A DNA stretch of 64,000 nucleotides. Origin: Colius striatus. Its lineage: Eukaryota > Chordata > Aves > Coliiformes > Coliidae. This document shows positions 14,881-58,423 of this stretch, one piece after another. The notes beneath the pieces were generated by a model that was not told the origin of the DNA, ran no database searches, and worked only from the letters and a program-made list of their open reading frames with translations. A program made the translations under genes and the position numbers. The stretch lies in assembly GCF_028858725.1 (NCBI RefSeq), contig NC_084773.1, positions 4,330,350 to 4,394,349 of the forward strand. Direction: 5' to 3'. Position 1 is the first letter of the stretch; every line of letters starts with the position of its first letter.

Positions 14881-15299
14881 CGCGAGGGGCGGCGGCGGCA
14901 GGGCCGGAGGAGAGCGGCCCCTGGCGGGGCCAGCGGGCAGCGCCGGCCGTCGGAAAGGGCCGAGAGCGGGCGGCGGTGGCCCCTAAAGCAGCCCCGGCGC
15001 AGCAGCGGGTCCCCGGGCTACCGCCGTGCCAACCGGGCTGCCAGCGCGGCTGGAAGGGCAGAGGCATCGGAAGCAGGTGGATAAAAGGGTCGGCAGGGGA
15101 GATGTAGCGGCAGCCACGCGTGGGGCAGTCACGATGTGGCAGGATGGTTCCCTCTGGCCAGAGCGGAGGGTGCTGCAGGCCGCACGGCATGCAAGGAACA
15201 AAAGGTTACGGTGTAGAAGTCCCCGTGTCAGCTGCAGCCCGCGGCGGGCCCGGACAGCTTCTGCTCTCTCAGGCTGGGTCTGGGAGGAATTTCTTTGCT

Positions 15300-15488
15300 G
15301 ACAGGGCTGTGGGGCATTGGAAGGGGCTGCCCAGGGAGGTGCTGGAGTCACCGTCCCTGGAGGGGTTTCAGAGACGAGTGGATGCTGCACTGAGGGAAAT
15401 GGTCTAGTGGTTGATAGGGCTGGGACAGAGGCTGCACTGCATGAGCTTAAAGGTTTCTTCCAGCTGAAACGATTCTATGATTCTTCCA
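15300..15488 (+). mobile_element. CR1 LINE 3' fragment
   Basis: It reads GGCATTGGAAGGGGCTGCCC, AGGGAGGTGCTGGAGTCACC, then GGTTTCTTCCAGCTGAAACG and a terminal ATTCTATGATTCT. This is the standard CR1 3' end, inserted just upstream of the BICD2-like CpG island. Confidence 0.85.
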
Positions 15489-38764: not shown

Positions 38765-39830
38765 AAAAATCATAGAGCAATTTGAGTTGGAAGGGACATT
38801 TCAAGGTGTAGTCCAGTCCCCTGTAATGAGCAGGGACATCTTCAAGTACATCAAGTTGCTCACAGCTTCATCCGACCTGACCTTGTATGTTTCCAGGGTC
38901 AGGGCACCTACCACCTCTCACAGCAAACTCTGCCTGTTGTTTCACCACTCTCATCATAAAAAAAGTCTTTCTTACATCTAGCCTGAATCTCTCCTCTTTA
39001 AAACCATTACCCCTTGTCCTAGTGCAACAGGCTCTGCTAAAACCTCTGCCCAAAACTCTGCCCTATCTTTCTTTGAAGCCCCTTTTCAGTCTTGAATGGC
39101 TGCACTTGGGTCTCCCCAGAGCTGTCTCCTCTCCAGGCTGAACAGCCCCAGCTCTCTCAGCCTGAGGTTTTCCATCCCTCTGACCATTTCTGTGGCCCTG
39201 CTCTGGACCCTCTCCAACAGGTCCATGTCTCTCCGGTGCTGAGGACCCCAGAACTGGAGTCAGCACTGCCAGAGCAGAGTCAAGGGGCAGAATCCCCTCC
39301 CTTGACCTGCTGCCCACCCCACGCTGCTGGTGATGCAGCCCAGGACACAGTTGGGCTTCTAAACAGCAATGCATGTTGCCAGTTCATGTCCAGCTTTTCA
39401 TCCACCAGCATCCCCAAGTCCTTCTTAGCAGGAGAAGCTCTCAATCTCTTCATCTCTTACCTGTATTGATACTGGGGATTGCCATGACCTTGATGCAGGA
39501 CCTTGCACTTGGCTTTGTGGAACCTCATGAGGTTCACCTGGGCCTACTTCTCAAGCTAATCTAGGTCCCTCTGGATAGCATCCCATCCCAAAGGCAGGTC
39601 AACCACACCACTCAGCTTGGTGTTGTCTGAAAACTTCCTGAGGGTGCACTCAATCCCAGTGTGTATGTCACTGACGAAGATATTAAACAGTGCTGGTCCC
39701 AGCACAGACCCCTGCAGGTCACTGCTTGTCACCAATCTCCACTCACACAGCTCAGCACCTGAAAGAGCTAGGGATGCTTTCAGCCTGCTGGCAGCAGCTG
39801 CTAAGAAGAGCCACCTCCTGGTCAAGTTGC
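38765..39830 (-). mobile_element. CR1 LINE, reverse orientation, RT remnant plus 3' UTR
   Basis: Read on the minus strand, it has the end of the reverse transcriptase ([31 protein letters not shown], around 39560-39760), then the ORF2 C-terminal region and 3' tail ending near 38770. The RT active-site triplet region reads SDNT rather than the usual ADDT and the frame is broken downstream. It ends about 100 bp from the orphan CpG island. Confidence 0.9.
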
Positions 39831-39929
39831 TTCCCGGGCCTGAGGAAAATACCAGAACTTCACTGCTTCTGTGCTGCTCTACCTTAGGCGACTATTTTAC
39901 CACGAAGCACAACAGATGCATGTCTAGGT

Positions 39930-40640
39930 GCCTACCTGTGCGCGGTCGGGAGGGAGCCCGGGCGGTGCCCGGCCCAGAGGGCGGTGCGGGGACAGGGAAG
40001 CCCGCAGCCGCCTCTCCGGCATCCGCCCGGCACCCGGTGACGTCAGGAGGAGCGCGGGCCGCCATTGGCCAAGGGGCAGCGGCACGGCCAATGACAGCGC
40101 GGGGAGGGGTTGCGCCGCTGTGGGCCGGGCCGGGCCTCTACCTAGCGCCCGGTGACGTCAGGCGCCGCGCGGGCGGCCGTTGGCGGTCCCTCAGTGGGCT
40201 CGATCGGGCGCCGGCGGACGGGGTGAGCGGCGACGGGCGGCGGCCCGTGCGGGGACAGGGCCTGCGCTCGGCGTCACGCCGGGGTATCCCAGCCTGCGGC
40301 CAGAAGCGCAGCGGCCATGAGAGGGGGAGCCGAGCCATCCCCCCGCAGCCAGTGGATCCGCGGGGCCGCGGCCCTGACGGCCGGGCCGTGGGGGTGGCCC
40401 AGCCCGGGGCCCAGCCGCCTACCGCTGCTGCCCACGGCACCCGGCCCACCCTTCGTGGCACAGAATCCCGTCAAACGATCCCGTCTTTGCCGCCCCGGAG
40501 CGCGTTTGTCGCTGGATTTCCCTCTCGGTCCCACGGTCGGCCGCCTGCCCAGGTTCCCTGGGCTCCCAGGCTGTGTGCTGGCCCTGCACCTCCGCTGCCG
40601 CCATCCCCCAGCCCCAGGGACCCGCTTCTGGTGCTGATGT
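39930..40640. promoter_or_regulatory. orphan CpG island with duplicated CRE/CCAAT module
   Basis: A dense CpG island with two perfect CREs (TGACGTCA at 40038-40045 and 40153-40160), forward and reverse CCAAT boxes (40062-40070 and 40087-40092) and no TATA box. It looks like a genuine promoter. Plausible first-exon donors exist in both directions: GGG|GTGAGC on the plus strand near 40222 and CAG|GTAGGC on the minus strand near 39937. I found no coding exon to attach on either side. CD1 gene A is on the minus strand and ends at 41027, so its own start is 3.3 kb further right. A non-coding RNA or distant gene is possible. Confidence 0.65.
40031..40185. repeat. tandemly duplicated promoter module (~115 bp period)
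   Basis: The block CCCGGTGACGTCAGG, then GCGCGGGC(C/G)GCC(A/G)TTGGC, occurs at about 40034-40069 and again at about 40149-40184. Both copies keep the full CRE; the second has lost the perfect CCAAT complement (GTTGGC). Confidence 0.75.
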
Positions 40641-40859
40641 GCCCCTGGAAAGGTGTGTGTGGGACGCTGGTTCTGCCATGTGGCTGCCCCAGCCTGCAGA
40701 GGCGCTGGCTGGGTTCTGCTGCTTCACGGGAAGCCCAGTGCCCCCAGGGACAGGGACACCCAGTCGATGGGTCAGTGTCAAGGGCTTGTCTCAACCAGGG
40801 ATGAGGAATGTGGGCGCGAACACTGGAGGTCCCATGTGCACAGGGGTGTCAATTCATGG

Positions 40860-41026: not shown

Positions 41027-43894
41027 TCACTTATGCCTGTAGTGCCGGATGGCTCCGGAGAGGCCTACAGCCACAATCAGCAGCACCACTATAGTGATGC
41101 CAACAGCAAGACCTATATTGGAGCTGTCTGAAGGGGAAAGAAGAGAGAGGGCTTGTGTGAGTGCATGAGAGGCCAGGACTGGAGCTGCCATTGCAACCTG
41201 GCCCACTAACCTCCAAGGAGGTCTGTAGGGCTACTGTACCCCAGAGCCCCAGGTGCCACATACCCCAGGGCACGAGGAGGCTGCGGGTGCCCAGGCTGCT
41301 GTGGCGCACACGGCAGGCGTAGCTGTGCCCATCGCGGGGGGCCACAGCCAGGACGCTGCGCAGCTGGTAGGTGAGGTCGGCGTTGGGCAGGATGGCGCTG
41401 GTGCTGAGCGCCGGGCCCGGCAGCACCTCCTGGCCGTCCCGCAGCCAGGCCACGCTGATGGGCCGTGGGTAGAAGCCGGTGACGTGGCAAACGAGCAGGA
41501 GCTGGGCTGGGCTGGGCGTGCGGGCGAAGACCGTGGCCACGGGGAGCTCTGGAGGGCGAGAGCCAAGGGGTGTGGGGAGGCTCGGTGGGGCACTGCTTGG
41601 CCCTGGTTTGTTGGGGGCTTTGGGGTGTCCGTGGCAGAATCAGGGAGGTCTCACCTTGTCTCTCCAGATCAGCCTTCCCAAACTTGATGAATTTCTTCAT
41701 GTGGTCAACACAGGTCACATTGAGGAGGAACTGCAGGGTCTGAGAGATGCCAGTGTAGCTGCTGAACTCTTTCTCAACTTGTGCTGCCAGCTGACTGTTC
41801 TGCTTCCTCTCCCAGTGCCTGTTGTCTACATTGAAGCTGAGGAATTCATGGGCATTGAAGGCAAGATGGCCAAATCTGGTGTAGGAGCCATTGGGATACA
41901 AGTCGCAGCCGGCTGTGGCCTGGATGACAAAGGGGTCTGGGAGAGATGGTGGGTGTTACGAGCACAGGTCGAGCTGGAGGATGAAATGGCAGCCTGGCAC
42001 CCACTGCTTTAGGCTCAGCTCCTGACTGTTTTCCCAAAGCCTGTCAGTGTTCAAGAGGCATTTGGACAGTGCCCTTGATAATTTGCTTTAAATTTTGGCC
42101 ACTCCTGAAGGAGTCAAGTAGCTGGACAAGATGACCATTGTGGGTCTCTTCCAGCTGAACTATTCTCTTGATTCCATTGCATTCCCCCATGTCACTGCTC
42201 TGCTTTACACCAGATGGAAACTGCAGGTGAGAAACGTGTCCTGAGCTCACTGTCCTTGAGCTGCCCCTGCTCACAGCAAGGTCAGGAGCCACAGCAAAAT
42301 GGGCAGCACTGCTTTGGGGGAGCGAGAGCATATTGGGGGTGTGTGAGGAGGAGGAGGACAGTGGCACTCTATCTGTGCCCTGCTCTTGGATCAGCACTGC
42401 TACACCAGTGCCAGACGCTTGCTCTGACTCTCCCCTCTCACTGACCTTCTACTCCACTTCCTCAGATTACTTCTGCAATGAGGTTTGTGGTGTATGCAGA
42501 GAATAATAGCAGGGCCTGGTTAAGCAAAACTAAACACAGCCAAGGCTTGTGGGGGGCACCACGGTGGCCCTGTGTGACCTTTGTACAGGACAAGCTGTTT
42601 TGGGGGTTTAGGATTGGGTTTACTGGTGCAGGACGAAGCCCTTTCCCTGCCTTCCTGCCAGGCCCAGTTTGGTAAAGCTGTTGGTGGCTCTTAGCAACTT
42701 CTCCTAGCTTCCTGCCGTGAGCAAGGAGGAGTTGGGCATCTGGTACTCACAGGGCGTCTGTAACTGGCTAGCATCAGTGGAGAGGGACAATATGAAGTTC
42801 TGAAAGTAGATCTTGAACATGTTTATCAAGTTCTTCCACTGTGCATTAGGCAGGGCTGGATAGACCCATGGGTAGCAGTAGAGGACGCTGTTGTTGTGTT
42901 TCTGCCATCTAACAAAGATCATGTCCTCCAGGGTGGCCCAGGCTGAAAAATCTACAAAGCTGGTGTTGTGGAAGATCATGGTTTGGAAAAGGTGGAGTTT
43001 ACAGGAGCCTGTGCGGAGAGTGGGGAGTAGAAGCAGCATTAGAGTGGATGACGAAGAAGGAGGAGGCCAGAAGACTACTGGCCCCATCCTGGTAGATAGC
43101 TCTTGGAGGAACGGTGGCTGCAGCGTCCCTGAGGACAGGCAGCACCCACAGCCTGGGTGCAGGGGCCAGGGGGGCTGTGGGGAAGGGGCATTCCCTCCCC
43201 GTTTAGGGATCCAGGCAGTGCTCAGGACCAAACCCTAACAGGAGGCAGGACAATGAGTTTGGTGCTGCAGCGCCAGGTGAGGCTCTGGTAGTGAGCAGGG
43301 CAGGGTGAGGCTGGTTTTGGAGCAGTGGGTGAGCATCTGCCCTAAAATGGGAATCATGGGCTGGGGATGCAGGGGAGAGGTCGTGGCAGGTGCAGGAGGA
43401 GCCTTCTAGCATTGTGTCACTGAGGTTCCAGGGACCATTTGATTACAAGGGAAGTGGTGTGGCAGGCTGAGGGCAGTGCCTAGGAGCTGCTGGAGGGGCT
43501 GGAGCCCAGCAAAGGGCTACTGTGCCACAAGGGGCCGAGCACCCCTTCCAGTGTGGTGCCTGTGGTTGCTCCTGCCCCTTTGGGGGCACCCCAGGCCTGG
43601 CTGAGGCAACCCTTGGCCCTCAACTGCTCATGTGTCTGAACCCTGGCGCCAGTGATGCTGGGCTGGGCAGGATGATGTGGGGCAGGGAACCCCGAGCATC
43701 TGGGCAGGGATGGGGCAGCTTTGGGCACTGTGGGTTAGGGGGTGCCCCCTGTGCCACTCCCACCAGAAAGTGGATCCCACAGCTAAGGGATAGGAGCAGG
43801 TGGGGGTGAGCCCAGGCTTCCACTTACCCTCTGGATCTGCCGCCGTCCCAGGGAGCAGAAGGAGAAGGAAGAGGAGGAGGCGAGCGGGCTGCAT
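41027..43894 (-). CDS. CD1 heavy chain, gene A
   Basis: Complete five-exon CD1 gene. Exons in coding order: 43828-43894, 42751-43008, 41655-41936, 41264-41548, 41027-41127. All borders are GT-AG and phase 1, giving 330 residues. Exon 1 is a signal peptide (MQPARLLLFLLLLLPGTAA). Exon 2 is alpha1 (LHLFQTMIFHNTSF; glycosylation sites NTS, NNS). Exon 3 is alpha2 (YPFVIQATAGCDLYPNGS, with a Cys pair to NVTCVDHMKK). Exon 4 is the Ig-like alpha3 (LLLVCHVTGFYPRPISVAW, paired Cys in YACRVRH). Exon 5 is a hydrophobic span and a tail of about six residues (RHYRHK). The protein should sit at the cell surface with beta-2-microglobulin and present lipids. The tail has no YxxPhi sorting motif, so deep lysosomal sorting is not predicted. 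CD1 identity is firm. Which chicken CD1 it corresponds to is not decided. Confidence 0.92.
42040..42175 (+). mobile_element. CR1 LINE 3' end in intron 2 of CD1 gene A
   Basis: It reads GTGTTCAAGAGGCATTTGGA, CAGTGCCCTTGATAA, then GTGGGTCTCTTCCAGCTGAA and CTATTCTCTTGATTC. It sits at the same intron position as the ORF2 relic in gene B and probably comes from the same ancestral insertion. Confidence 0.8.
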
Positions 43895-44013
43895 GGTGCC
43901 AGCAACAAGTGTGCAGGAGCAAGTGTAGCAGGAGGAGGAAGAGGCTGTGAAGCCACAACCACACATTTCTCCCCAGGGCTGCTCTAGCAGTGCCAGCGGT
44001 GTGCCGCAGCCCC

Positions 44014-44026
44014 GGCAGCCAATGAG
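44014..44026 (-). promoter_or_regulatory. inverted CCAAT/Y-box-like element, gene A promoter
   Basis: CTCATTGGCTGCC on the minus strand, about 125 bp upstream of the start codon. The same element occurs at equivalent places in genes B and C. No TATA box or recognisable class II X box is beside it. Confidence 0.6.
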
Positions 44027-44883
44027 ACCAGTGGGGAGGCTTTGGGGGTGGCCAGGGCAGGTGGGCTCAAAGGGAGCTGTGGTGGCTGGTGGAGGGCTGG
44101 GGCACTCGGGCTGCGGGCTGTCAGTGCCAGGGGAGTTTGGGTGGGTATGAAGTCATCACTCCTGGCTGCTGCAGCACTCTGATACCCAGGGGAATATGAG
44201 CAGAGCCTGACCTGTGGTGGCCTTTGCCTGCTCATGTGGAAACCCCCAGTGCTTTACTCTGTAATCCCCTGTCAGAGGGTACCAGGGTTACGTGGCTGGG
44301 ATTTGGTAGCAGGTGGACTGCAGAGGTCATGCAAGATGATGCCAGAAGCTTTGCCCATGTCCAACACAGCCAGTTTCAGCCATCTATGGCCAAGGCTGCA
44401 CCAGTGATGTTGGTAGTGCCTCTGGGACAGTGTTTAAGAAGGGGCAAAAGTGCAACAGCAGCTGTGAGAGAGGAGTGAGAATATGTGACACAAGCATGGA
44501 AGCACCAAAGTCAGTGATGAAGCAGAGGAGGAGGTGCCCCAGGCTCAGAGCAGAGGCCTGTGGTTTGGCCTATGATAAGGCTCTGCCCCTGCAGCCATGA
44601 GGACCCCATACCAGAGAGAGTGGGTGCCCAAGGGAGGCTGTGACCCAGTGGGAAGCCCATGCTAGAGCAAGTTCCTGGCAAGACCTGGAAACCCACAGAG
44701 AGAGGAGCACGGCTTCTGTCAGTACTTGTGACCCTATGTGAGATTCACCCTGGAGCAGTTTGTGAAGAACCAGAGCCCATGGGAAGGAACCTCGTTGAAG
44801 AAGTTCTTGAAAGGCTGTTTCCCATGGGAGGGACCCCACACTGGAGCAGAGTGAGGAGGAAGGAGCAACAGAGACAAGAGGGA

Positions 44884-45544
44884 ATGACAAGAGAGGTGGT
44901 CACCTAGTGAGTAGCCCAGGTCAACCCATCACACCACACCACAGCACACCAGCCTTCTTGGAGGCACATTGCTCAAAGCCAGAGTCCCCCAGACCCTCTG
45001 CATGGGTCTTTCATGGCTCTCAGGTGTATTGGGAGGGTGAGTGTCCCTCACCCTCCAGCTTTTGCAGGGGAAGAAGTCAGGCATGGGGGCAGGGACAAGG
45101 AGTGGTGCAGATCCTGTCCCAATGCCGTTGCAGACAAGTGGTGGTGTCAGCACTGGTTCCAGAGTGGCTTTGTGCCTGCTGCAAATGCTTCCCTGCCTCA
45201 GGGTCCTGGAGATATCACTTGGCTCCTCCCTTCCCCTCCTCTCCCCAGTGAAACAGCTCAGGTCTCTCCATCATCCCCTGGTCTGTGGCCACTCAGTGGC
45301 CTCGTACTGGTCTGATCCCACATTGTCACTGCCCCTGTACTCAGGACAGATGCTGGCCATGGAGATGGTGAGATGTGAGGGAGGTTGGTGGGGAATTGCT
45401 GGCCGGGGAGTTGGGTCAGTGCCCAGAAAAAGAGAGAGTTTTCCTGGCTGCAGTGGGAGGTCTGTGCAGTGCAGAGGGAGTTTCCTGGGGGGAAGGTGGG
45501 CGAGAGGCACAGGAGTCACATGTGGATGGGGAAGTTTGTAGCTG
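44884..45544. other. spacer between CD1 genes A and B, nothing recognised
   Basis: GC-rich unique sequence between the two duplication blocks. ORFs of 100-166 codons occur in overlapping frames on both strands, typical of GC-rich non-coding DNA, and none resembles a known protein. Confidence 0.5.
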
Positions 45545-45550
45545 TTTAAT
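45545..45550 (-). terminator. possible poly(A) signal of CD1 gene B (ATTAAA)
   Basis: Variant hexamer on the minus strand about 425 bp past the gene B stop codon. No AATAAA was found nearer, so this is the best candidate but weak. Confidence 0.35.
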
Positions 45551-45601
45551 GTGATCCTTTTCCAGAGCAAACCCTCGTTGCTTGGTGGGTCAAGGACAAG
45601 T

Positions 45602-45862
45602 TGTGAGATGAGCAGGGAGAGACAGTGGTGAAGGAGCCCGTTGCTGGGTGGGCAGATCGGCCTCACATCATGAGTTCTGTGGACTCATCGCTTTTCCTGC
45701 ACTGGCAGGAAAAGATGAGATGAGATGAGATGAGATGAGATGAGATGAGATGAGATGAGATGAGATGATCAAGGAGAGCCAGTGGTGAAGTAGCTCGTTG
45801 GACAGATAGACCTCAAATCCTGAATTACTGGGCTTCATCGCTTTTCCTGTATGGACAGGGGC
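45602..45862. repeat. two-copy ~160-bp repeat with (GATGA)n expansion
   Basis: Two diverged units (about 45602-45712 and 45760-45862) share GAGATGA(G/T)C, CAGTGGTGAAG, CATCGCTTTTCCTG and GGACAGG-like segments. Between them lies an uninterrupted pentanucleotide array at 45714-45768, about 11 copies of GATGA, apparently expanded from the GAGATGA that opens each unit. It lies just past the 3' end of CD1 gene B and may be in its 3' UTR. Confidence 0.8.
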
Positions 45863-45974
45863 CACCATGAGCTGCACTGAGGGCCGGCAGCTTCATCCCT
45901 GCAGAGCTGCTACTGCAACCCCTGCGCAGAGCCATCAGCCCATTGACCCGAGAGCAGCTGGTGGGAGGGGGAGC

Positions 45975-48900
45975 TCACCTGTGCTTCCACCACCAAAACC
46001 CCCCGGCACAGGCTGCGGCCACGAGGAGCAGCACCATGACAGTGATGCCGATGGTCAGAGCTGAGCCGCGCCTTTGTATTTCTGGTTCAGAAAGGGAGAG
46101 GAGTTGGCGGCCGTGTGAGCGTGGAGCAGCGGGCAGAAGCTGCCGCTCATGGGGCCAGCTGCTGCCAGCCACACCCTGCTCCCCAGAGCCCCAGGTGCCA
46201 CATACCCCAAGGCACGAGGAGGCTGCGGGTGCCCAGGCTGCGGTGGCGCACGCGGCAGGCGTAGCTGTGCCCGTCGCGGGGGGCCACGGCCAGGACGCTG
46301 CGCAGCTGGTAGGTGAGGTCGGCGTTGGGCAGGATGGCGCTGGTGCTGAGCGCCAGGCCCGGCGGCACCTCCTGGCCGTCCCGCAGCCAGGCCACGCTGA
46401 TGGGCCGTGGGTAGAAGCCGGTGACGTGGCAAACGAGCAGGAGCTGGGCTGGGCTGGGCGTGCGGGCGAAGACCGTGGCCACGGGGAGCTCTGGAGGGCG
46501 AGAGCCAAGGGGGGTGGGGAGGCTCGGTGGGGCACTGCTTGGCCCTGGTGTGTGGGGGGCTTTGGGGTGTCTGTGGCAGGGTCAGGGAGGTCTCACCTTG
46601 TCTCTCCAGATCAACCTTCGCATACTGAATGAATTTCTTCATGTGGTCAACACAGGTCACATTGAGGAGGAACTGCAGGGTCTGAGAGAAGATAGTGAAG
46701 CTGTTGAACTCTTTTTCAACTTCTGCTGCCAGCTGACTGTTCTGTTTCCTCTCCCAGTGCCTGTTGTCCACATTGAAGCTGAGGAATTCATGGGCATTGA
46801 AGGCAAGATGGCCAAATCTGGTGTAGGAGCCATTGGGATACAAGTCGCAGCCAGCTGCACCCTGGATGACAAAAGGGTCTGGGAGAGATGGTGGGTGTTA
46901 TGAGCACAGGTTGAGCTGGAGGATGAAATGGCAGGCTGGTACCCACTGCTTTGGACTCAGCTCCTTTCCCCCTTCCCTCTACACCCTGAGTCTTCCTCAG
47001 GGAGAAGTCACAAAAGGCCAAAGCTCAATTAGAGTTGAAACTGACCAGTGTTGTGTCAGAAAGGAAGAAAGCCTTTTACAATTACATTGATAGCAAGAGG
47101 AGGTCTGAAGAAAATATTGGACCGATACTTGCTGAAGGTGGTCACTTGACTGATAGGGATGAAGAAGCAGCAGAGGCATTCAATGCTTTTTCTGCCTGTC
47201 TTTGCTAATACTGACAGACCATGGGCTGCTGGTGACCTGAGTGGCAGGACCATGAGTGCAGGAGCAGTGACTTTTGCAGACACTGACATTGCCAAGGACC
47301 AGCTGCACCACCTGAGTGTTCACAAGTCCATGGGTCCTGATGGCATTCACCCTGGAGCACAGAAGGAGCTGGTGGATGTCATGGCAAGACCCCTCTCCAT
47401 CACCTATCCAAGGTCACAGGAATATGGGGAGGTTCCCACTGACTGGGCAAGAAGGGTATGAGGGAAGACTCAGGGACCTAAAGACCTGCAAGTGTGACCT
47501 CAGCCCCTGGAAAAATGGTGGAGAAGCTGAGAGCAGGGCAATCATGAGCATCATGAAATGAAACAGAAACACATGCTGGCTGTCTCTCCTGGGGTGGAGT
47601 GACACTGGGTACGAATATGAACTGTGAGGGGAGCGGCCCTGCAGAGGGTGCCAAGGATGCAGCTCACCATTTAGTCATTGCATTGCATTCCCCCATGTCA
47701 TTGCTTTTCTTTACACCAGCTGGAAACTGCAGGTGAGAAACCTGTCCTGAGCTCACTGTCCTTGAGCTGCCCCTGCTCACAGCAGGGTCAGGAGCCACAG
47801 CAAAATGGGCAGCACTGCTTTGGGGGAGCGAGAGCATGTGGGGTTGTGTGAGGAGGAGGACAGTGGCACTCTGCCTGTGCCCTGCCCTTGGGTCAGCACT
47901 GCTGCACCACTTTGTGGGGCCAGAAACTTGCTTTGACTCTCCCCTCCTACTGACCTTCTACTTCACTTCCTCAGTTGACTTCTGTGGTGGGATTCGTGGT
48001 GCCCAGAGAGCAATAGCAGGGCCTGGTTAAGCAAAACTAAACACAGCCAAGGCTTGTGGGGGGCACCAGGGTGGACCTGTGTGACCTTTGTACAGGACAA
48101 GCTGGTTTTCAGGTCTTGCTGGTGCAGGATGAAGCTCATTCCCTGCCTTCCTGCCAGACCCAGTTTGGTAAAGCTGTTGGTGGTGGCTCTGAGCAACTTC
48201 TCCTAGCTTCCCACCTTGGGCAAGTACAAGCTGAGCATCTGGTACTCACAGGGTGTCTGGGTCAGGTTGACATTGCTGGATAGGGATGGAACGAAGCCAT
48301 GAAGGTAGTTCTTGAACACATTTATCAAGTTCTTCCACTCTTCTTCAGGCAGGGCTGGATAGACCCATGGGTAGCAGTAGAGGATGCTGTCGTTGTGTTT
48401 CTGCCAGCTAGCAAAGACCATGTCCTCCAGGGTGGCCCAGGCTGAAAAATCCGCAAAGCTGGTGTTGTGGAAGATGACGATTTGGAAAAGGTGGAGTTTA
48501 CAGGAGCCTGTGGGGAGAGTGGGGAGTAGAAGCAGCATTAGGGTGGATGATGAAGAAGGAGCAGACCAGAGACTGCTGGTAGGAAGCCCTGGGGACAGGC
48601 AGGGCAAGATGGAGCAGCACGGGGGAGATCCCCTGTTTTCATGCAGTTTGCTGTTTCCTTCCATGGCCTCTCAGAGCCTCTCCCTGCTTCACCTCTAATT
48701 TCCTTTCCCTACCCATCTGCCACCCTTGTGACCCTCTGGGAGCTGCCACTGAGCCATGGGGAAGGGATGTCAGGGGGATGTCAGTGCTGCTTCGGGCCGT
48801 GCTTTGCTCAACAGGAGCAGCCATACCAGCAACCACAGCCTGAGTGTAGGGGCCAGGGGGGCTGTGGAGAAGGGGCATTCCCTCCCTGTTTAGGGATCCA

Positions 48901-49582
48901 GGCAGTGCTCAGAACCAAACCCTAAGAGGAGGCAGGAGATCGAGTTTAGTGCTGCAGCGCCAGGTGAGGCTCTGGTAGTGAGCAGGGCAGGGTGAGGCCG
49001 TTTTTGGAGCAGTGGGTGAGCATCTGCCCTAAAATGGGAATCACGGGCTGGGGATGCAGGGGAGAGGTCGTGGCAGCTGCAGGAGGAGCCTTCCAGCATT
49101 GTGTCACTGAGGTTCCAGGGACCCTTTGATTGCAAGAGAAGTGGTGTGGCAGGCTGAGGGCAGTGCCAAGGAGCTGCTGGAGGGGCTAGAGCCCAGCACA
49201 GGGCTGCTGTGCCACGAGGGGCCAAGCGCCCATTCCACTGTGGTGCCTGTGGTTGCTCCTGCCCCTTTGGGGGCACCCCAGGCCTGGCTGAGGCAGCCCT
49301 TGGCCCTCAGCTGCTCAGGTGTCTGAACCCTGGCACCAGTGATGCTGGGCTGGGCAGGATGATGTGGGGCAGGGAACCCCGAGCAGCTGGGCAGGGATGG
49401 GGCAGCTTTGGGCACTGTGGGTTAGGGGGTGATCGCTGTGCCCCTCCCGCCAAAACTGTGGGTCCCGGAGCTAAGGGATGGGAGCAGGTGGGGGTGAGCC
49501 CAGGCTTCCACTTACCCTCTGGATCTGCCGCTGTCCCAGGGAGCAGAAGGAGAAGGAAGAGGAGGAGGCGAGCAGGCTGCAT
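45975..49582 (-). CDS. CD1 heavy chain, gene B
   Basis: Complete five-exon CD1 gene and tandem paralogue of gene A. Exons: 49516-49582, 48250-48507, 46597-46878, 46206-46490, 45975-46081, all GT-AG and phase 1; 332 residues. The signal peptide is identical to that of A. Alpha1 is close to A in its first half but differs clearly in the helix (EEEWKNLINVFKNYLHGF against NAQWKNLINMFKIYFQNF). Alpha2 and alpha3 are nearly the same as in A. The membrane exon is different (EIQRRGSALTIGITVMVLLL, ending in GGFWWWKHR), with a Trp-rich membrane edge and a two- or three-residue tail without sorting motifs. Intron 2 is longer than in A (1371 against 814 bp) because it holds a CR1 fragment, and intron 1 has about 190 extra bp near 48605-48830. 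Expected role is lipid presentation with beta-2-microglobulin. No disabling change is seen. Confidence 0.92.
46990..47480 (+). mobile_element. CR1 LINE ORF2 fragment in intron 2 of CD1 gene B
   Basis: Degraded reverse transcriptase-region coding on the plus strand. One frame gives VSERKKAFYNYIDSKRRSEE and another HKSMGPDGIHPGAQKELVDV, then GEVPTDWARR, all typical of avian CR1 ORF2 before and at the start of the RT domain. Frameshifts separate the pieces. Confidence 0.85.
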
Positions 49583-49701
49583 GGTGCCAGCAACAAGTGT
49601 GCAGGAGCAAGTGTAGCAGGAGGAGGAAGAGGCTGTGAAGCCACAACCACACATTTCTCCCCAGGGCAGTTCTGGCAGTGCCAGCGGTGTGCCGCAGCCC
49701 C

Positions 49702-49714
49702 GGCAGCCAATGAG
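49702..49714 (-). promoter_or_regulatory. inverted CCAAT/Y-box-like element, gene B promoter
   Basis: CTCATTGGCTGCC about 125 bp upstream of the gene B start codon, identical in sequence and spacing to gene A. Confidence 0.6.
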
Positions 49715-50583
49715 ACCAGTGGGGAGGTTTTGGGGGTGGCCAGGGCAGGTGGGCTCAGGGGGAGCTGTGGTGGCTGGTGGAGGGCTGGGGCACTCGGGCT
49801 GGTGGCTGTCAGTGCCAGGGGAGTTTGGGTGGGTATGAAGTCGTCACTCCTGGCTGCAGCAGCACCCTGATACCCAGGGGGATATGGGCAGAGCCTGACC
49901 TGTGATGGCCTTTGCCTGCTCATGTGGAAACCCCCAGGGATTTACTCTGTAATCCCCTGTCAGAGGGTACCAGGGTTACGTGGCTGGGATTTGGTAGCAG
50001 GTGGACTGCAGAGGTCATGCAAGATGGTGCCAGAAGCTTTGCCCATGTCCAGCACAGCCAGTTTCAGCCATCTATGGCCAATGCTGCACCAGTGATGTTG
50101 GTAGTGCCTCTGGGACAGTGTTTGAGAAGGGGCAAAAGTGCAACAGCAGCTGGGAGAGAGGAGTGAGAATATGTGACACAAGCACGGAGGCACCAAAGTC
50201 AGTGATGAAGCCGAGGAGGAGGTGCCCCAGGCTCAGAGCAGAGGCCTGTGGTGTGGCCTGTGATAAGGCCCTGCCCCTGCAGCCATGAGGACCCCATACC
50301 AGAGAGAGTGGGTGCTCAAGGGAGGCTGTGACCCAGTGGGAAGCCCATGCTGGAGCAGGTTCCTGGCAGGCCCTGGAAACCCACAGAGAGAGGAGCCCAT
50401 GTCAGAGCAGGGCTCCTGTCAGTACTTGTGACCCTGTGTGGGATTCACCCTGGAGCAGTTTGTGAAGAACTGGAGCCCATGGGAAGGAACCTCGTTGGAG
50501 AAGTTCTTGAAGGGCTGTTTCCCATGGGAGGGACCCCACACTGGAGCAGAGTGAGGAGGAAGGAGCAACAGAGACAAGAGGGT

Positions 50584-51040
50584 TTGGGACCAGTGCAGAT
50601 GTGTCAGTGCTGGGGACCTGTGGGAGGGAGAAAAGCCAAAATAAGGTCTCAAATATGAATTGCCATGACAGACTGGGGCTGGGGATAGCTTGTTCACGAG
50701 GAGATAGTACAGAAAAGAGGCCCAGGAACTACCCAAGCAGTGGGAGAAAACAGGTTCCCCCGACTCTCCCTCCATGCGGATGGTGCCTTGTGCTGATCCC
50801 CGTTCTTGGTTGCATCACACCCAATGAAGGTGATGACAACTCTTGGGTTTCAGCCCTGACAGGAGAAAGACAGCTGCTGTCCCCTCAGCTCTTGCATGGG
50901 GAGAAAGGCTGCTTTGGATCTCACTGGCACCTCCAGCTCAGGATCCTCCTGTACCAGCTGCCTCACCCCAGGGATGGGGCTCCTCAGTGAGTAGGTGGTG
51001 AGCAGTTTGTGCCCAGCTCACAGCTGCCAGAATAGTGGTG
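50584..51040. other. spacer upstream of the CD1 A/B-type block, nothing recognised
   Basis: About 450 bp separating the end of duplication block 2 from the next duplicated segment. No exon or motif recognised. Confidence 0.5.
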
Positions 51041-52010
51041 GGGAGCTCCAAGTCTCCCAGGACTGGGCCTGGGTCTGGGCTGCAGCATGGCACTCCCCTT
51101 TCCTTCCCATCATCTTTGGTGGGGAACCTCATCCCCCTCCCCAAGTGCCCCTGGGCATGGGAACAGAGATGTTGGGGATCAGCCCCCTGCTCTGTCCCAT
51201 GGACACCAGTGCCCAGTGCTGGATGGACAATGGGGTGGCCTCACCCCCACAATGGCCTCTGCCCCCTGCTTCTCCCTGGCTGTCCCCTGCCTCCCCCCAC
51301 CCCACTGCAGTTTCCCTTCCTCTTTCCTGGGTGTGTCTGCACTGGGGGCAAAGGCAGAACCGAAACCACAGCCAAGGGGAAGTTTGAAGTGGGGTCTGTG
51401 GTGACCTCCAAACACAAACAGGGCCGAGGCATCCCCTCTGCAGTGTGTCAGGGCTCTGTGTGACCCCTCCAGGTGCAGCAGGGACCGGGTGTCCCTGCTC
51501 CACGTCTCCCCTCAGGTGTCCCCAGCTGTGGTGGGCACACGGGGAAGGCCCGTTCGCGGCTGCTGTGGGCTGAGCTCCCACGCCCCGTGACACTGAGTCA
51601 GAGATGGGGATACAAGGACACCAAACCCCTTCCTTTCCATGGAGCTGTCCCATGGAGAAGTAGGGATGCTGTGGTAGCCTGGTGGGCCCACAAATGGCAC
51701 CAGCTTCCCCAGAAACTCAACTCATCACCCAGGGGATGCCCAGCCATGGCACCACAGTGCCCACATCACTCTGGGCAGGGCCAGCAGTGCTGGGGTCAGA
51801 GGAGAGTGTTTGGCTGGTGAGGTGGCAAAGCACAGCGCTGGATGGCCAGCATGGGAGGGGCAGGGGGGCTTTTGTCCACATAGTCCCAGGAGATGAGCAT
51901 TTGTCCTCACAGTCCCCCCTAAGGTGACCATTGTTCACGTCCTGCTGAGCCATCATGTCCTGGTGGCCATTAGCAGGCCCCTGGCTACCACAGGTGTGTG
52001 CGAGGTCACT
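51041..52010. repeat. ~1 kb duplicated non-coding block, copy 1 (upstream of gene B)
   Basis: Very similar to 57455-58423 in the same orientation, starting GCTCCAAGTCTCCCA and ending at GAGGTCACTG. Both copies keep an AP-1-type TGAGTCA (51594-51600 here). Open frames are present in several registers but none is selectively clean, so I regard it as non-coding. The copy lies about 1.5 kb upstream of gene B; its partner lies about 1.2 kb upstream of gene C. Confidence 0.85.
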
Positions 52011-52510
52011 GGTGGCCAAGTAGCTGATGGAGCTGAGCAGGTCCCTGGCTCTGCACGTGCTTATGATGTGTTCAGACTCCCCTGAATTTTCTCCAGATGT
52101 CTCCCATTGTTGCTGTGGGCCAGACCCTCTGCTTTAGCACTTCCTCATCACTATGGGGTGTACTTGTCCTCATGTTTTGCTGTTTATTTGCACTTATGTT
52201 ACTGTAGCAGAGGTTCAGCTTCTTTCTCCTTGATGTGGTCACTCCCTTTGGTCAGCAAATGGCCAAGGGCAGAAGGTGCTTGTTCATCCACACAGACTGT
52301 TGGTCCTCACAGTCCCTTAAGGTGGACATTGTTCCTCAGATTCACCCCACAGTTGACCACTGGTCACCTGCATTCCCTCGGGTGACACTGATTGTTACAG
52401 GCCTGCTAGGTGACCACTGGTGCTCACTGTGTCCCCCCCCTCTGCCCGGGTGACTGCAGGACTTTGCAGTTCCACCTCAGGTGGACATTGGTCCTCCAGA
52501 CCACTGAGGT
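51885..52510. repeat. degenerate minisatellite-like tract
   Basis: Loose repeats of a motif like GTCCTCACAGTCCC followed by TAAGGTGACCATTG occur near 51901, 52292, 52320, 52350, 52385, 52412 and 52480. Spacing and sequence vary. Only its left end lies in the duplicated block. Confidence 0.55.
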
Positions 52511-52723
52511 AACTGGGGAGGTGTGTTTGGGCAGAGGTGCAGGGCCTTGGGGTTCTGCACTGCTTGTATGGTCACCAGCATTTGCTGGGCCGAAATGTCT
52601 GAAGAGACCCATTGAAACACCGGCTCTGTGTGTGTTACTATAGGGTTTCCTGGGGGCTGTGAACAAACATCTGCCAGCAACTTTGGTACTGGGTGTTTGG
52701 GAGCATGTTACTTACTGTAAAGT

Positions 52724-53288
52724 CTCATGTTCAAAACCTACTCGTATGCATTCCTCTGTGACTTGATCTAGGTGGGACCTGCTTTAGCACACTTCTGGAA
52801 TATTGTGTCCAGTTCTGGGCCCCTCAGTTCCAGAAGGACAGGGAGCAGCTGGAGAGAGTTCAGTGCAGGGACACAGAGATGATGGAGCAGAGATGAAAGG
52901 CTGAGGGAGCTGGAGCTCTTCAGCTTGGAGAAGAGGAGACTGAGGGGTGACCTCATTCATGTTTACAAATACATAAAGGGCAGGTGTCAGGAGGCTGGAG
53001 CCAGGCTGTTCTCAGTGATGGCCAATGATAGGACAGGGGGCAACAGGTACAAGCTGGAACAGAGGAGGTTCCAAAGAAACACAAGGAAAAACTTCTTCCC
53101 TGTTGAGGTGAGGGAGCCCTGGAAGGGGCTGCCCAGATGGGCTGTGGAGTTGCTGTCTCTGAGGACATTCAAACCCACCTGGATGAGTTCCTGTGTGACT
53201 AACTGTAGGTGGTCCTGCTCTGACAGGGGGGTTGGACTAGGTGATCTTTCAAGGTCCCTTCCAACCCTTGAGAGTCTGTGATTCTACA
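52724..53288 (+). mobile_element. CR1 LINE, probably two adjoining fragments
   Basis: A short CR1 3' piece (TTCCTCTGTGACTTGATCTA, about 52728-52785) is followed directly by a longer CR1 3' part ([39 protein letters not shown] in one frame). The end reads CAACCCTTGAGAGTCTGTGA then TTCTAC. The order suggests one CR1 inserted into or beside another. Confidence 0.85.
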
Positions 53289-54600
53289 GTGAGTTCCTCA
53301 GGCCTTGCAGTGCTGGATGTGGTTCTGGCTGCCAGGGAAATTCAGTCCTGCCCACAGCACTGTGGTTCACAGGGTCTGGCCAGGAGAGAACCAGCCCTGA
53401 TGGAGCTGTGGTAGAGGTGGCCACAGGCCAGGTGTGGTTCTTCTGACTCAGGTGATAGTTTGCTCGCACACAGCTGCCAGAGTCATATCCTGTGTAACTG
53501 CTGAGAAGTTGTCCTGTGAAACAAAACCTCATGAAGCCGCGTGTTCAAGCGTGTGATTGATTGGGAAGACACGCTAAATTCCTTCCTATGCCTGTCTGAA
53601 CCCCGCTGACTGTAAAGGGAAACCAGCTTCCTTTCTGTCCTTAACTGTGAGGCTTGAGGCCACTCTGCCCCCGTGTGCTCGTCTTTGTATTTGCATGAAC
53701 TATGTAAGAAGGTGTTTGTACATGCACAAACACACTCTTACTGCTTTTTTTCTTGCCTTGGTGTTTCCTGCAGTTGGCACCAATATTTCAGTGGTGCTCC
53801 AGCTTCTATTTGCAGCTGATCAAAACCTCCCCAAGCCCATCAAACTCGTGAGGAAAGGCACGTGTTCTTATTGAAAACATGAATATTTTAATGTCATTTT
53901 CTACACACCTGCAGCTCCCACAGATTTCATCAGAGACTCAGAGTTACTCAGAACTTTGTAGGATGGTTTATGTCTATGTCAAACAGTTCCGTTTCAGCAC
54001 AAATATTTCTGGAATATGGTTTAAAAAGGCAGCTTTTAGGGAAAAAAAAGTGCTAGAAAGCGACAGTAGCAGGGCACAGCTTACTGCCTACCGATAAATG
54101 CGTCACTACCACAGAAACTGCCATCTGGGCATTGGGGTGCCCTGAAGAGCCTCATAGGATGCTTGATGCAGTGCCATGAGGTAAGAGGTCGTGTGTAATG
54201 GGTGAGGAGGGCTCAGGCTTACATCCTTGTCTGCTTAGTGAGTTGAAGCCCTCCCCAGGTTTCCCCCACTGCAGGTCCAAGTCGAGTTGACCTTGCACTC
54301 AGCACTGCCCAGAATTTTGTCAAAGCAGAAAAAGGTGAGAGTTTGTCCTTGAGAGAGTGGTGGAAGGAAACAGAGGCTGCTGGCTCCCCTTCTGGTCTAA
54401 GTGTCTCTGCTCAGGATGGAGTTCCTGGACTCTGATTCCTCCAGCTGCCGGCGCTTTCTGGAACGGGCAGAGGGGCAGCTCAGGGGTGGCCCACAGAAGG
54501 GACCTCGTGGGGGGCAGCTGACGGGGCCAGAGCAGGGGCTGCGCTGCCGATCTCAGCCATTCCCTGCGGCATTTCACCCCCTCCTCTCCCGCTCTGTGCC
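53289..54600. other. spacer downstream of CD1 gene C, nothing recognised
   Basis: About 1.3 kb between the CR1 and the 3' end of gene C. No gene is supported, and no canonical AATAAA for gene C was found close to its stop. Confidence 0.5.
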
Positions 54601-54617
54601 ATGGGGCAGAACTGGCC

Positions 54618-56285
54618 TCACCTGTGTCTCCACACACAAAGCGCTGTGATGGCAGCCATGGCCACGGCTGCCAGTAGCCCGGCTCCGAGCCCTGCGATCA
54701 GCACCAGCTCCGAGTTCCCTGAGGAACACAAGCAGAGGCTGCCCTGAGCTCTCCTGGCTTTGCAGCTCAGCAGCCCACCCCAGAGCCCCAGGTGCCACGT
54801 ACCCCAGGGCACGAGGAGGCTGCGGGTGCCCAGGCTGCGGTGGTGCACGCGGCAGGCGTAGCTGTGCCCGTCACGGGGGGCCACAGCCAGGACGCTGCGC
54901 AGCTGGTAGGTGAGGTCGGCGTTGGGCAGGATGGCGCTGGTGCTGAGCGCCGGGCCCGGCGGCACCTCCTGGCCGTCCCGCAGCCAGGCCACGCTGATGG
55001 GCCGTGGGTAGAAGCCGGTGACGTGGCAAACAAGCAGGAGCTGGGCTGGGCTGGGCGTGCGGGCGAAGACCGTGGCCACGGGGAGCTCTGGAGGGCGAGA
55101 GCCAAGGGGTGTGGGGAGGCTTGGTGGGGCACTGCTTGGCCCTGGTGTGTGGGGGGCTTTGGGGTGTCCGTGGCAGGGTCAGGGAGGTCTCACCTTGTCT
55201 CTCCAGAGCTGCCATCCCGTAGTGCAGTAACACCTCCGTGTCGTCAACACAGGTTTCGTTGAAGAGAACTTCCACCAGCTCAGTGAAGGCAGTATAGTTG
55301 TGGAGGACATCCCGGACATACCGCGACAGGTTGGTGTCTTGGGAGGGGAGCCAGGTGTAATTGTCCATGTTAAAGCTGAGGAAGTCCTGTCCATTGTAGC
55401 CCACGTAGGCAAAGGCGTGGGAGGTCCTATTGGAGAAAATCGTGCAGCCTGCCATACACTGTGCCACAAAGGGGTCTGGAGGAACAGAGAGGAGAGAGAG
55501 GTTGCATGAGGGGCTGGGACTGCCTTCCTGCCAACGTGGTCGGCATCTCCTGTGCAGTGCCAGCACCGTCTGGTCCTTCCCCACTTCCCAGATGCTGCTC
55601 GGAGAGAGGACACAGGGAAGATCATGTACTCACAGGGCACATCCTTCTGCATGGCACCTTCATTGATCAGGTGGTTGAACTGCTGCAGATAGATCTTGAT
55701 CATGTTCTGAATGGTGTCCCAGTCACTGCGGGGCAGGGCTGGGCGCACCCAGGGCTGGTAGAAGTGGATGGCCCAGGTGTGCTTATCAAGAGAACCAAGC
55801 TCAATGTCTTCCAGCAGGCCCAGCCCCTCTGTCTCCACAAAGGTGGTGTTTTGGAAGACGGAGGTCTGCAGCAGCCGGACAGTGAAGGTCCCTGCATGAG
55901 ACAGGGAGCAACAGGGCGGGAGGAAGTGGGAAGAGATGACTGGGGAAAGTGAAGCAGATGAGAGATGGGTCCTTGGGGTTGCAGGGACCTCTGGGCTCCC
56001 CATAAGTGCCCCGCATCGTTGTCAGCCTTGGCTCTCACCCTCTGTACCCACCTGAGGTGGCTGCATCCCTTGCTGGGCAGAAGGTATGGAGCCAAGGAAC
56101 AAGGAGGGGTGAGGAGGCAGATGCTCAAGGTGGATGGGGAGCAGGGAGATCATGAGATCCCACGGGGACATGGAGCAGATGTGGATGAACCAGGGCTACC
56201 ACTTACCCTCCGGATCTGCCCGTGTCCCAGAGATGAGGAGGTAGAGGAGAAGGAGGAGGAGGAGACAGCAACGAGGGGGCTGCAT
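54618..56285 (-). CDS. CD1 heavy chain, gene C (divergent, compact)
   Basis: Complete CD1 gene in 1.7 kb. Exons: 56207-56285, 55634-55891, 55194-55475, 54803-55087, 54618-54718; GT-AG, phase 1; 334 residues. The leader is MQPPRCCLLLLLLLYLLISG. Alpha1 (TFTVRLLQTSVFQNTTF, then WAIHFYQPWVRPALPRSDW) and alpha2 (YPFVAQCMAGCTIFSNRTS, then NETCVDDTEVLLHYG) differ widely from A and B. Alpha3 differs from theirs by only two or three residues. At least six N-glycosylation sequons are visible (NTT, NRT, NYT twice, NLS, NET). The membrane span (LIAGLGAGLLAAVAMAAITA) ends in a short VWRHR tail with no tyrosine sorting motif. Expected role is lipid-antigen presentation. The divergent groove implies ligands different from those of A and B. 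The sequence resembles classical avian CD1 more than A and B do, so it may be the ancestral type. Confidence 0.92.
54776..55210. repeat. shared intron 3/alpha3 cassette (gene C copy)
   Basis: This stretch matches gene A (41239-41672) and gene B (46181-46614) almost base for base. Similarity begins in intron 4 at CCCCAGAGCCCCAGGTGCCA, covers exon 4 and intron 3, and stops a few bases into exon 3 at CACCTTGTCTCTCCAGA. On both sides gene C is strongly diverged. Confidence 0.85.
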
Positions 56286-56430: not shown

Positions 56431-57454
56431 GCTGGCACCAAGGTTTCAGGGAGGGCCTCGAGGTTCCTGCTTGGGGTGTGGTGGGCTGATCTGGGCTGGG
56501 GAATCCTGAGTAGAGCTGTGGGTACTGGGGGAATTTGAGTGGGAGCCAGGCCATCCCACTGGCTTCAGGAGGGGTTCCTCATGTCTGGGACCTTGCACCT
56601 TGACAACTAGGGCAGTGCAGCAACCTGACCCTTCTTTTCTACCTGCATTACAGGTGGAGATGTTAGGAGATGGTAGCTGGGCATAGACTGCATCCACTTT
56701 CCCTGAGAGGAACAACCCTCGTTGCCACTCCTACCCAGCAGCACACACATCTCCATCTGCTCTGCGCTGCCTGGTGAGCCAGGAGTGTTTGTCCAACATG
56801 GCTCTCCTGCAGGTGAGGCAAATGGAGTTCCTGCAGCCTGTGCCCTCAGGCCTCAGGGCAGCTCCAGGCCCACCCGCAGTCAGGTCATACTGAAGCTGCT
56901 GCTGAAACCTGCAGGAGCAGAGCTGGTCCAGGCCAAGGCTGTGGCCATGGACAGCTCTGGGGGACCAGAGTGAGGAGAGCTGGGGATATCCCTGACTTCT
57001 TGGCACCACTTCAGGCACTGGCCTGATCCTGGGAAGGTTTTCCCCAGGGAGGAGGTGATGAGCAGTTCAGGCCAGCCGACAGCTGAGGGCTCAGGGGTGG
57101 GCGCAGGCAGGGCTGGGAGAACACGGCTCCTCTAGGAAATCCTCTCAGGGCACAGGAAGTGGATGGGCTGGAGCTGCTGTAATGGGATGATTCCCAAGGG
57201 GAGAGAGAGGCTGTGGGGACTGCACAGAACTGTTATCCACTGACAGTCATCAGACACTTTGAGCAGTGGCACTTGGCTGGGCAGGATCCCCAAGCTGCGA
57301 TGGCGATGAGACCATGGTTCACCCCTCCTGAACCCATTCCAGTGGGCTGCAGTGGATAAGCAGTCTCCTCATTTCCATGGAGACCTATCCATGCCAGAGA
57401 TGCCATGGAGTGTGAGAAATGCTTCACTGCTTTCCTGCACCTCACAGTGCTGGA
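56431..57454. other. 5' flank of gene C, nothing further recognised
   Basis: About 1 kb of GC-rich unique sequence between the gene C promoter and the duplicated block. Confidence 0.5.
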
Positions 57455-58423
57455 AAGCTCCAAGTCTCCCATAAATGCACTCACAAGCAGGCCTGGGTCT
57501 GGGCTGAAGCATGGCACTCCCCTTTCCTTCCTATCATCTTGTTGCCATCAAGTGCCCTCCGGGCATGGGAACAGGCATGTTGGGGATCAGCCCCCTGCTC
57601 TGTCCCATGGACACCAGTGCCCAGTGCTGGATGGACAATGGGGTGGCCTCACCCCTACAGTGGCCTCTGCACCCTGCTTCTCCCTGGCTGTCCCCTGCCT
57701 CCCCCCACCCCACTGCAGTTTCCCTTCCTCTTTCCTGGGGGTGTCTGCACTGGGGGCAAAGGCAGAACCGAAACTACAGCCAAGGGGAAGTTGGAGGTGG
57801 GGTCTGTGGTGACCTCCAAACACAAACAGGGCCGAGGCATCCCCTCTGCAGTGTGTCAGGGCTCTGTGTGACCCCTCCAGGTGCAGCAGGGACCGGGTGT
57901 CCCTGCCCCACGTCTCCCCTCAGGTGTCCCCAGCTGTGGTGGGCACACGGGGAAGGCCCGTTCGCGGCTGCTGTGGGCTGAGCTCCCACGCCCCGTGACA
58001 CTGAGTCAGAGATGGGGATACAAGGACACCAAACCCCTTCCTTTCCATGGAGCTGTCCCATGGAGAAGTAGGGATGCTGTGGTGGCCTGGTGGGCCCAAA
58101 AATAGCACCAGCTTCCCCAGAAATTGATCTCGGCATCACTCAGGGGATGTCCAGCCATGGCACCACAGTGCCCACATCACTCTGGGCAGGGCCAGCAGTG
58201 CTGGAGTCAGAGGAGAGTGTTTGGCTGGTGAGGTGGCAAAGCACAGTGCTGGATGGCCAGCATGGGAGGGGCAGGGGGGCTTTTGTCCACACAGTCCCAG
58301 GAGATGAGCATTTGTCCTCACAGTCCCCCCTAAGGTGACCATTGTTCACGTCCTGCTGAGCCATCATGTCCTGGTGGCCATTAGCAGGCCCCTGGCTACC
58401 ACAAGTGTGTGTGAGGTCACTGA
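57455..58423. repeat. ~1 kb duplicated non-coding block, copy 2 (upstream of gene C)
   Basis: Partner of 51041-52010, with the TGAGTCA motif at 58002-58008. After GTGAGGTCACTG the two copies diverge at once, which marks the duplication edge. Confidence 0.85.

What the first reader, a model, noticed from the sequence alone, without database searches (positions are those of the whole stretch)
41239..55210. Alpha3 exon plus intron 3 is a homogenised cassette shared by all three CD1 genes
Gene C is strongly diverged from A and B in leader, alpha1, alpha2 and membrane exons, yet ~430 bp covering intron 3 and exon 4 is nearly identical in all three, including intronic bases. Coding constraint cannot explain an intron being as similar as the exon, so recent gene conversion is the best explanation. 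The abrupt edges (CCCCAGAGCCCCAGG on one side, CACCTTGTCTCTCCAG on the other) define the tract. The tract is very CpG-rich, as expected under GC-biased conversion.
Basis: partly seen in the sequence, partly recalled or inferred. Interest (0 to 1): 0.7.

Follow-up and report, generated by a model that had tools for sequence, protein, structure and literature searches.

The report
Shared alpha3 exon in bird CD1 genes
Three neighbouring bird CD1 lipid-presenting genes, two alike and one very different from them, share one nearly identical 430-base block around the exon for the immunoglobulin-like domain, best explained by the genes repeatedly copying that block from each other, a process already known from mammalian MHC genes.

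Summary
Three CD1 genes (minus strand, open frames) share a gap-free 430-bp tract: the last 14 nt of exon 3, all of intron 3 (106 bp), all of exon 4 (285 bp) and the first 25 nt of intron 4. Inside it gene C differs from A at 13 sites and from B at 10. Outside, C is 49-62% identical to A and B in introns 1, 2 and 4 and exons 2-3. Silent divergence is 0.054 in exon 4 for all three pairs, against 0.87-0.92 for A-C and B-C in exons 2-3.

Chicken CD1.1 and CD1.2 proteins show the same pattern: alpha3 95/96 identical, alpha1/alpha2 23-26%. Yet chicken and window alpha3 share only 69-71 of 95 residues. Paralogues resemble each other within each lineage, so recurrent gene conversion within an island of remaining homology is the best reading.

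Added here: a downstream edge shared by all three pairs, an A/B break at that edge, and a second noncoding B/C tract upstream.

The parts
41239..41668 (-). Shared 430-bp tract, gene A copy
   Evidence: 8 of the 18 singleton sites are private to A
46181..46610 (-). Shared 430-bp tract, gene B copy
   Evidence: 5 private sites
54778..55207 (-). Shared 430-bp tract, gene C copy
   Evidence: 5 private sites
41264..41548 (-). Gene A exon 4 (alpha3 domain)
   Evidence: splice sites AG/GTATGT, 285 nt
46206..46490 (-). Gene B exon 4 (alpha3 domain)
   Evidence: splice sites AG/GTATGT
54803..55087 (-). Gene C exon 4 (alpha3 domain)
   Evidence: splice sites AG/GTACGT; C1-set domain in this frame
41549..41654 (-). 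Gene A intron 3
   Evidence: 106 bp, no indel against B or C
46491..46596 (-). Gene B intron 3
   Evidence: 106 bp
55088..55193 (-). Gene C intron 3
   Evidence: 106 bp
43828..43894 (-). Gene A exon 1 (leader)
42751..43008 (-). Gene A exon 2 (alpha1)
   Evidence: Pfam MHC_I_3 32.7 bits, below the cut-off of 35
41655..41936 (-). Gene A exon 3 (alpha2)
   Evidence: Pfam MHC_I_3 46.9 bits
41031..41127 (-). Gene A exon 5 (membrane); end at a GTGAG donor is inferred
   Evidence: tail exons not located
49516..49582 (-). Gene B exon 1 (leader)
48250..48507 (-). Gene B exon 2 (alpha1)
46597..46878 (-). Gene B exon 3 (alpha2)
45979..46081 (-). Gene B exon 5 (membrane); end inferred
56207..56285 (-). 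Gene C exon 1 (leader)
55634..55891 (-). Gene C exon 2 (alpha1)
   Evidence: Pfam MHC_I_3 38 bits
55194..55475 (-). Gene C exon 3 (alpha2)
   Evidence: Pfam MHC_I_3 38.1 bits
54622..54718 (-). Gene C exon 5 (membrane); end inferred
51034..52011 (.). Second B/C shared tract, noncoding, upstream of gene B
   Evidence: 545/560 and 282/289 identical in its two gap-free parts; longest exact run 176 nt
57446..58422 (.). Second B/C shared tract, noncoding, upstream of gene C
43140..44882 (.). 5' part and flank of gene A alike to gene B (48827-50582), 94%

Best explanation
The alpha3 segment of these CD1 genes evolves in concert. Non-allelic (interlocus) gene conversion, possibly helped by unequal crossing-over, repeatedly copies this block among A, B and C. 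Exchange is confined to an island where the genes are still alike enough to pair: exon 4 with intron 3, ending 14 nt inside exon 3 and 25 nt inside intron 4. The likely reason that the island persists is twofold. The alpha3 domain has the same task in every CD1 (it sits with beta-2-microglobulin under the groove; recalled), so copying it is harmless. Copying alpha1/alpha2 would erase the different lipid grooves, and copying the membrane exon would erase sorting differences, so such events are lost and those parts drift beyond pairing range. Shown here: the tract, its edges, the drop in silent and intron divergence, and the same within-lineage likeness in chicken proteins. Inferred: conversion as the physical event, its recurrence, its direction and the selective reason.
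For: Silent divergence 0.054 in exon 4 for all pairs against 0.87-0.92 in exons 2-3 for A-C and B-C; intron 3 95-97% against 49-62% for the other introns of these pairs, and equal length with no indel only in intron 3. In the tract A is as far from B (13 sites) as from C (13), though elsewhere A and B are close. Chicken CD1.1/CD1.2 alpha3 95/96 with alpha1 22/86 and alpha2 22/94; window alpha3 92-93 of 95 within, 69-71 of 95 to chicken. AU test rejects C with chicken CD1.1 in alpha3. All-site run far above 2000 shuffles.
Against: The alpha1/alpha2 tree is unresolved (AU p 0.33-0.35 for four clades). By identity C is nearest chicken CD1.1 in alpha1 (41/86), but in alpha2 chicken CD1.1 is slightly nearer to A (41/94) than to C (39/94), so the duplication order is not settled. 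Support for the A+B+C group in the alpha3 tree is only 61/65. The polymorphic-site runs test is weak for A-C, and for A-B its best segment lies in intron 1 or exon 3, not in the tract. No DNA of a second bird could be compared, so silent sites and intron 3 were not tested between species.
Confidence: 0.85

Rival explanations
1. A single transfer or hybrid-gene event: one old donor copy of the alpha3 block was passed once to the others (by conversion or unequal crossing-over), with no recurrent exchange.
For: All pairs differ by a similar amount (13, 13 and 10 of 430 sites) and share the downstream edge. A and B are alike upstream of that edge and unlike beyond it, as a crossover there would leave them.
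Against: Chicken shows the same domain homogenised, with its own alpha3 sequence, so at least one further event in another lineage is needed. The mean non-crossover tract in zebra finch is about 32 bp (PMC12047795, abstract passage), which suits several events better than one.
Confidence: 0.2
2. No exchange: exon 4 and intron 3 are kept alike by strong constraint (protein, splicing or a regulatory element).
For: Exon 4 is CpG-island-like, and alpha3 is the most conserved domain between species too.
Against: 24-26 of 95 alpha3 residues differ from chicken, so the protein is free to change; silent sites and the intron are as alike as the exon.
Confidence: 0.05
3. The reverse mosaic: B and C are a recent duplication, and the unlike parts of C (leader to alpha2, membrane exon) were brought in from another CD1 gene.
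For: A second tract upstream is 97% alike between B and C in the same order, as expected if both tracts are remains of one duplicated unit.
Against: It needs several separate replacements with ends in introns 4, exon 3 and upstream, and it still invokes exchange; chicken shows the alpha3-only pattern.
Confidence: 0.07
4. Assembly artefact: three similar exons collapsed to one consensus.
For: GC-rich near-identical blocks are hard to assemble (general knowledge).
Against: The copies differ at 18 sites, each private to one gene, 9 of them CpG decay; the window has no N.
Confidence: 0.02

Closest known systems
Exon 4/alpha3 concerted evolution of mammalian MHC class I (Joly and Rouillon 2006, PMC1403747)
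   Same: The same domain is homogenised within a species while alpha1/alpha2 keep gene identity (abstract and section 9 part 1).
   Different: There between class Ia and Ib genes of primates and rodents, by protein trees; here CD1 genes of a bird, with the intron included and edges to the base.
Chicken CD1.1 and CD1.2 (3jvg, 3dbx)
   Same: alpha3 95/96 identical, alpha1 22/86, alpha2 22/94; the identical stretch starts near the end of the alpha2 domain, as here.
   Different: Own alpha3 sequence (69-71 of 95 to the window's); DNA, intron 3 and the downstream edge not seen here.
Human CD1b/CD1e
   Same: alpha3 (82/94) much more alike than alpha1 (46/84) and alpha2 (42/90).
   Different: Less extreme; silent sites not examined; mammalian isotypes are reported to group by isotype across species (PMC5002281 section 4).

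Membership tests
Interlocus gene conversion / concerted evolution | Paralogues alike in a bounded tract including noncoding bases, unlike outside | tested here: met
Interlocus gene conversion / concerted evolution | Silent divergence drops in the tract | tested here: met
   0.054 against 0.87-0.92 for A-C and B-C
Interlocus gene conversion / concerted evolution | Inside the tract paralogues group by species | tested here: met
   C with chicken CD1.1 rejected, p 2.4e-15; protein, two birds, A+B+C support 61/65
Interlocus gene conversion / concerted evolution | Outside the tract genes group by orthology across species | tested here: inconclusive
   alpha1/alpha2: four clades, AU p 0.33-0.35
Interlocus gene conversion / concerted evolution | Significant GENECONV-type runs test on polymorphic sites | tested here: inconclusive
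   B-C 0/10000; A-C 91/10000 or 2353/10000
GC-biased conversion signature | GC/CpG gain over the whole tract and W>S excess | tested here: not met
   CpG excess in exon 4 only; 15 S>W, 3 W>S of 18
CD1 gene family | Leader, alpha1, alpha2, alpha3 (C1-set), membrane exons; best relatives CD1 | tested here: met
   exons in A, B, C; Pfam for A and C frames; first two PDB matches of A and C are chicken CD1 (B not searched)
CD1 gene family | Hydrophobic lipid groove; sorting motif in the tail | not tested
   no model made; tail exons not located

The most novel reading that the evidence does not exclude
The alpha3 exon of bird CD1 genes is itself a recombination-initiating CpG island. In a lineage without PRDM9, exchange starts there, which keeps homogenising this one exon (dragging intron 3 along) in lineage after lineage, inside or outside the MHC, and lets groove and membrane halves be recombined at its edge. 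Gene A, B-like up to 25 nt into intron 4 but different after it, would be such a hybrid.
Probability: 0.25. Interest if true: 0.6.

Novelty: new member of a known kind. Interest (0 to 1): 0.4.

Why it matters
It carries the alpha3-exon homogenisation known from mammalian MHC class I over to bird CD1, with base-level edges and a noncoding partner (intron 3) that separates exchange from protein constraint. It warns that trees of full-length bird CD1 proteins (such as Fig. 3 of PMC5002281, legend seen) mix two histories, so alpha1/alpha2 should be used apart to name orthologues. If the BICD2 neighbourhood means a place outside the MHC, then leaving the MHC did not free these genes from concerted evolution, which bears on a suggestion in PMC1397804 (passage).

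Tried and rejected
Constraint alone: set aside because of silent and intron divergence and the 24-26 of 95 residue differences to chicken.

GC-biased conversion as the cause of the CpG richness: not supported, since CpG follows exon 4 and not the tract.

The upstream B/C block as a mobile element or an enhancer: undecided. Against the rest of the window only three short matches of 19-37 nt were found. Each copy has one AP-1-like and one EICE-like site (recalled consensus, no chance control).

Relatives in prokaryote and viral contigs: none confirmed, as expected for a bird gene (379 pattern matches, 0 confirmed; 29, 0 confirmed).

Print: eight paper searches were made, six of them on CD1 and exchange or on bird CD1 genes. 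Among the listed papers that I opened, none of the passages or sections seen reports alpha3 homogenisation among CD1 genes; I opened nine papers in part (PMC5002281 sections 4 and 5 parts 2-3 and passages; PMC1403747 abstract and section 9 part 1; passages of PMC1397804, PMC4988538, PMC12047795, PMC4705597, PMC8813856, PMC2998441, PMC2907588). Four chicken CD1 papers (2005, 2005, 2008, 2010) are not held, and one of them may state it.
Full report
What is there. The window holds three CD1 genes in tandem on the minus strand, called A, B and C, each with leader, alpha1, alpha2, alpha3 and membrane exons, splice sites of the usual kind and an open frame; exons for the cytoplasmic tail were not located. 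Pfam was run on frames of A and C: MHC_I_3 in A exon 3 and C exons 2 and 3 (A exon 2 falls just below the cut-off), and a C1-set domain in C exon 4. The first two PDB matches of A and of C are chicken CD1.1 (3jvg) and CD1.2 (3dbx). These matches and CR1-like repeats (type recalled; repeat copies) point to a bird. The species is not known.

The tract. All three genes share 430 bp without a gap: the last 14 nt of exon 3, intron 3 (106 bp), exon 4 (285 bp) and 25 nt of intron 4. Coordinates: A 41239-41668, B 46181-46610, C 54778-55207. Inside it A-B and A-C differ at 13 sites each and B-C at 10; all 18 variable sites are singletons, 8 in A, 5 in B, 5 in C. Outside it C is 49-62% identical to A and B in introns 1, 2 and 4 and exons 2 and 3, 43-45% in exon 5 and 79% in exon 1. 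Silent divergence (Nei-Gojobori, own script) is 0.054 for all three pairs in exon 4; in exon 2 it is 0.22/0.90/0.89 and in exon 3 0.14/0.87/0.92 (AB/AC/BC). The intron is about as alike as the exon, so protein constraint cannot be the reason.

Statistics. The best-scoring all-site segment is this tract to within one base (431 columns, 13 mismatches for A-C; 430 columns, 10 mismatches for B-C), with scores of 366 and 380 against at most 38 in 2000 shuffles. A runs test on polymorphic sites only, in the manner of GENECONV, gives 0/10000 for B-C but 91/10000 for A-C, or 2353/10000 for A-C when introns 1 and 2 are left out; for A-B it is 0/10000 but its best segment lies in intron 1 or exon 3, not in the tract. 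That test has little to work with where all copies share the tract; I report it as inconclusive for A-C.

Edges and mosaic. The downstream edge is the same base for A-B, A-C and B-C to within one base, although A and B can be aligned at 85-97% for 3.6 kb of A (4.4 kb of B) on the other side of it. Beyond the edge their membrane exons are only 57% identical. So A and B are themselves joined differently at this point, and the edge looks like a limit of homology rather than the end of one event. B and C share a second noncoding block upstream (51034-52011 and 57446-58422; 545/560 and 282/289 identical in two gap-free parts, longest exact run 176 nt), in the same order relative to the gene. The genes are mosaics of recently shared and long-separated pieces.

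Across species. By protein, chicken CD1.1 and CD1.2 are 22/86 identical in alpha1, 22/94 in alpha2 and 95/96 in alpha3. The window's alpha3 domains are 92-93 of 95 identical to each other but only 69-71 of 95 to chicken. In the alpha3 tree of 7 rows, holding C with chicken CD1.1 is rejected (AU p 2.4e-15); the window group has support 61/65 and the chicken pair 93/91; holding A, B, C and chicken CD1.1 together against chicken CD1.2 is not rejected (p 0.10). The alpha1/alpha2 tree is unresolved: four clades, p 0.33-0.35. By identity C is nearer to chicken CD1.1 in alpha1 (41/86) than to A (35/89), but in alpha2 chicken CD1.1 is slightly nearer to A (41/94) than to C (39/94). So the A/B-C split looks about as old as the split from chicken, without a settled order. 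Zebra finch is listed with CD1 loci of about 3.2 and 1.7 kb on chromosome 12, a placement called uncertain there (PMC2907588 passages); A, B and C span about 2.9, 3.6 and 1.7 kb from ATG to exon 5, which is suggestive only. PDB constructs could be engineered; the two chicken chains carry plain names, while human chimeras in the same list are labelled.

Composition. Exon 4 has GC 0.73-0.74, GC3 0.94-0.96 and 27-31 CpG (o/e 0.73-0.82); intron 3 has 2-3 CpG (o/e 0.20-0.32). Three of the seven CpG-island-like stretches of the window overlap the three tracts. Of the 18 singletons, 15 are S>W and 3 W>S, and 9 are CpG decay (one search printed a 19th, one base outside the edge). This does not show GC-biased conversion. 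It leaves open that exon 4 is a recombination-prone CpG island: birds lack PRDM9 and recombination in zebra finch is enriched at CpG islands, with a mean non-crossover tract of about 32 bp (PMC12047795, abstract and passages). A 430-bp tract then suggests repeated events within an island of homology.

Mechanism. Most likely, interlocus conversion recurs in the alpha3 island because the copies are alike there and exchange is harmless, alpha3 sitting with beta-2-microglobulin in all CD1 molecules (recalled), while exchange in the groove and membrane exons is selected against or no longer possible. Shown: tract, edges, divergences, lineage-wise likeness. Inferred: the physical event, recurrence, direction and selection.

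Known or new. [quoted passage not shown] This is a new member of that kind. Human CD1b/CD1e lean the same way (alpha3 82/94, alpha1 46/84, alpha2 42/90). Whether the chicken case is already in print could not be checked, as four chicken CD1 papers are not held.

Limits. No collection of vertebrate DNA was on hand, and the search of the window's own genome never ran. Comparison of DNA between birds, the decisive test, remains to be done.

Noticed in passing
39761-40710: Strong CpG island (92 CpG, GC 0.71, o/e 0.77) just 3' of gene A; Pfam found nothing in the one plus-strand frame tried there.
   Followed up: partly
14079-14624 (-): Exon for the N-terminus of a bicaudal D homolog 2 (BICD2)-like protein (PDB 6pse, E 4.7e-34) in the CpG island 13551-15320. 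Chicken BICD2 on chromosome 12 is recalled; zebra finch CD1 loci are listed on chromosome 12, so this cluster may lie outside the MHC.
   Followed up: partly
61945-62355 (-): Piece of a ubiquitin hydrolase, nearest USP36 (Pfam UCH; PDB 8bs9).
   Followed up: partly
51034-52011 and 57446-58422: Noncoding block upstream of B and C, as alike as the alpha3 tract, absent upstream of A; nature unknown.
   Followed up: partly
42751-43008 and 48250-48507: A and B, otherwise close, drop to 63-78% identity in 60-column windows in one part of exon 2 (alpha1; columns 540-630 of the alignment).
   Followed up: no
about 45710-45770: Short tandem run of ATGAG units between genes A and B, seen in the sequence.
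   Followed up: no
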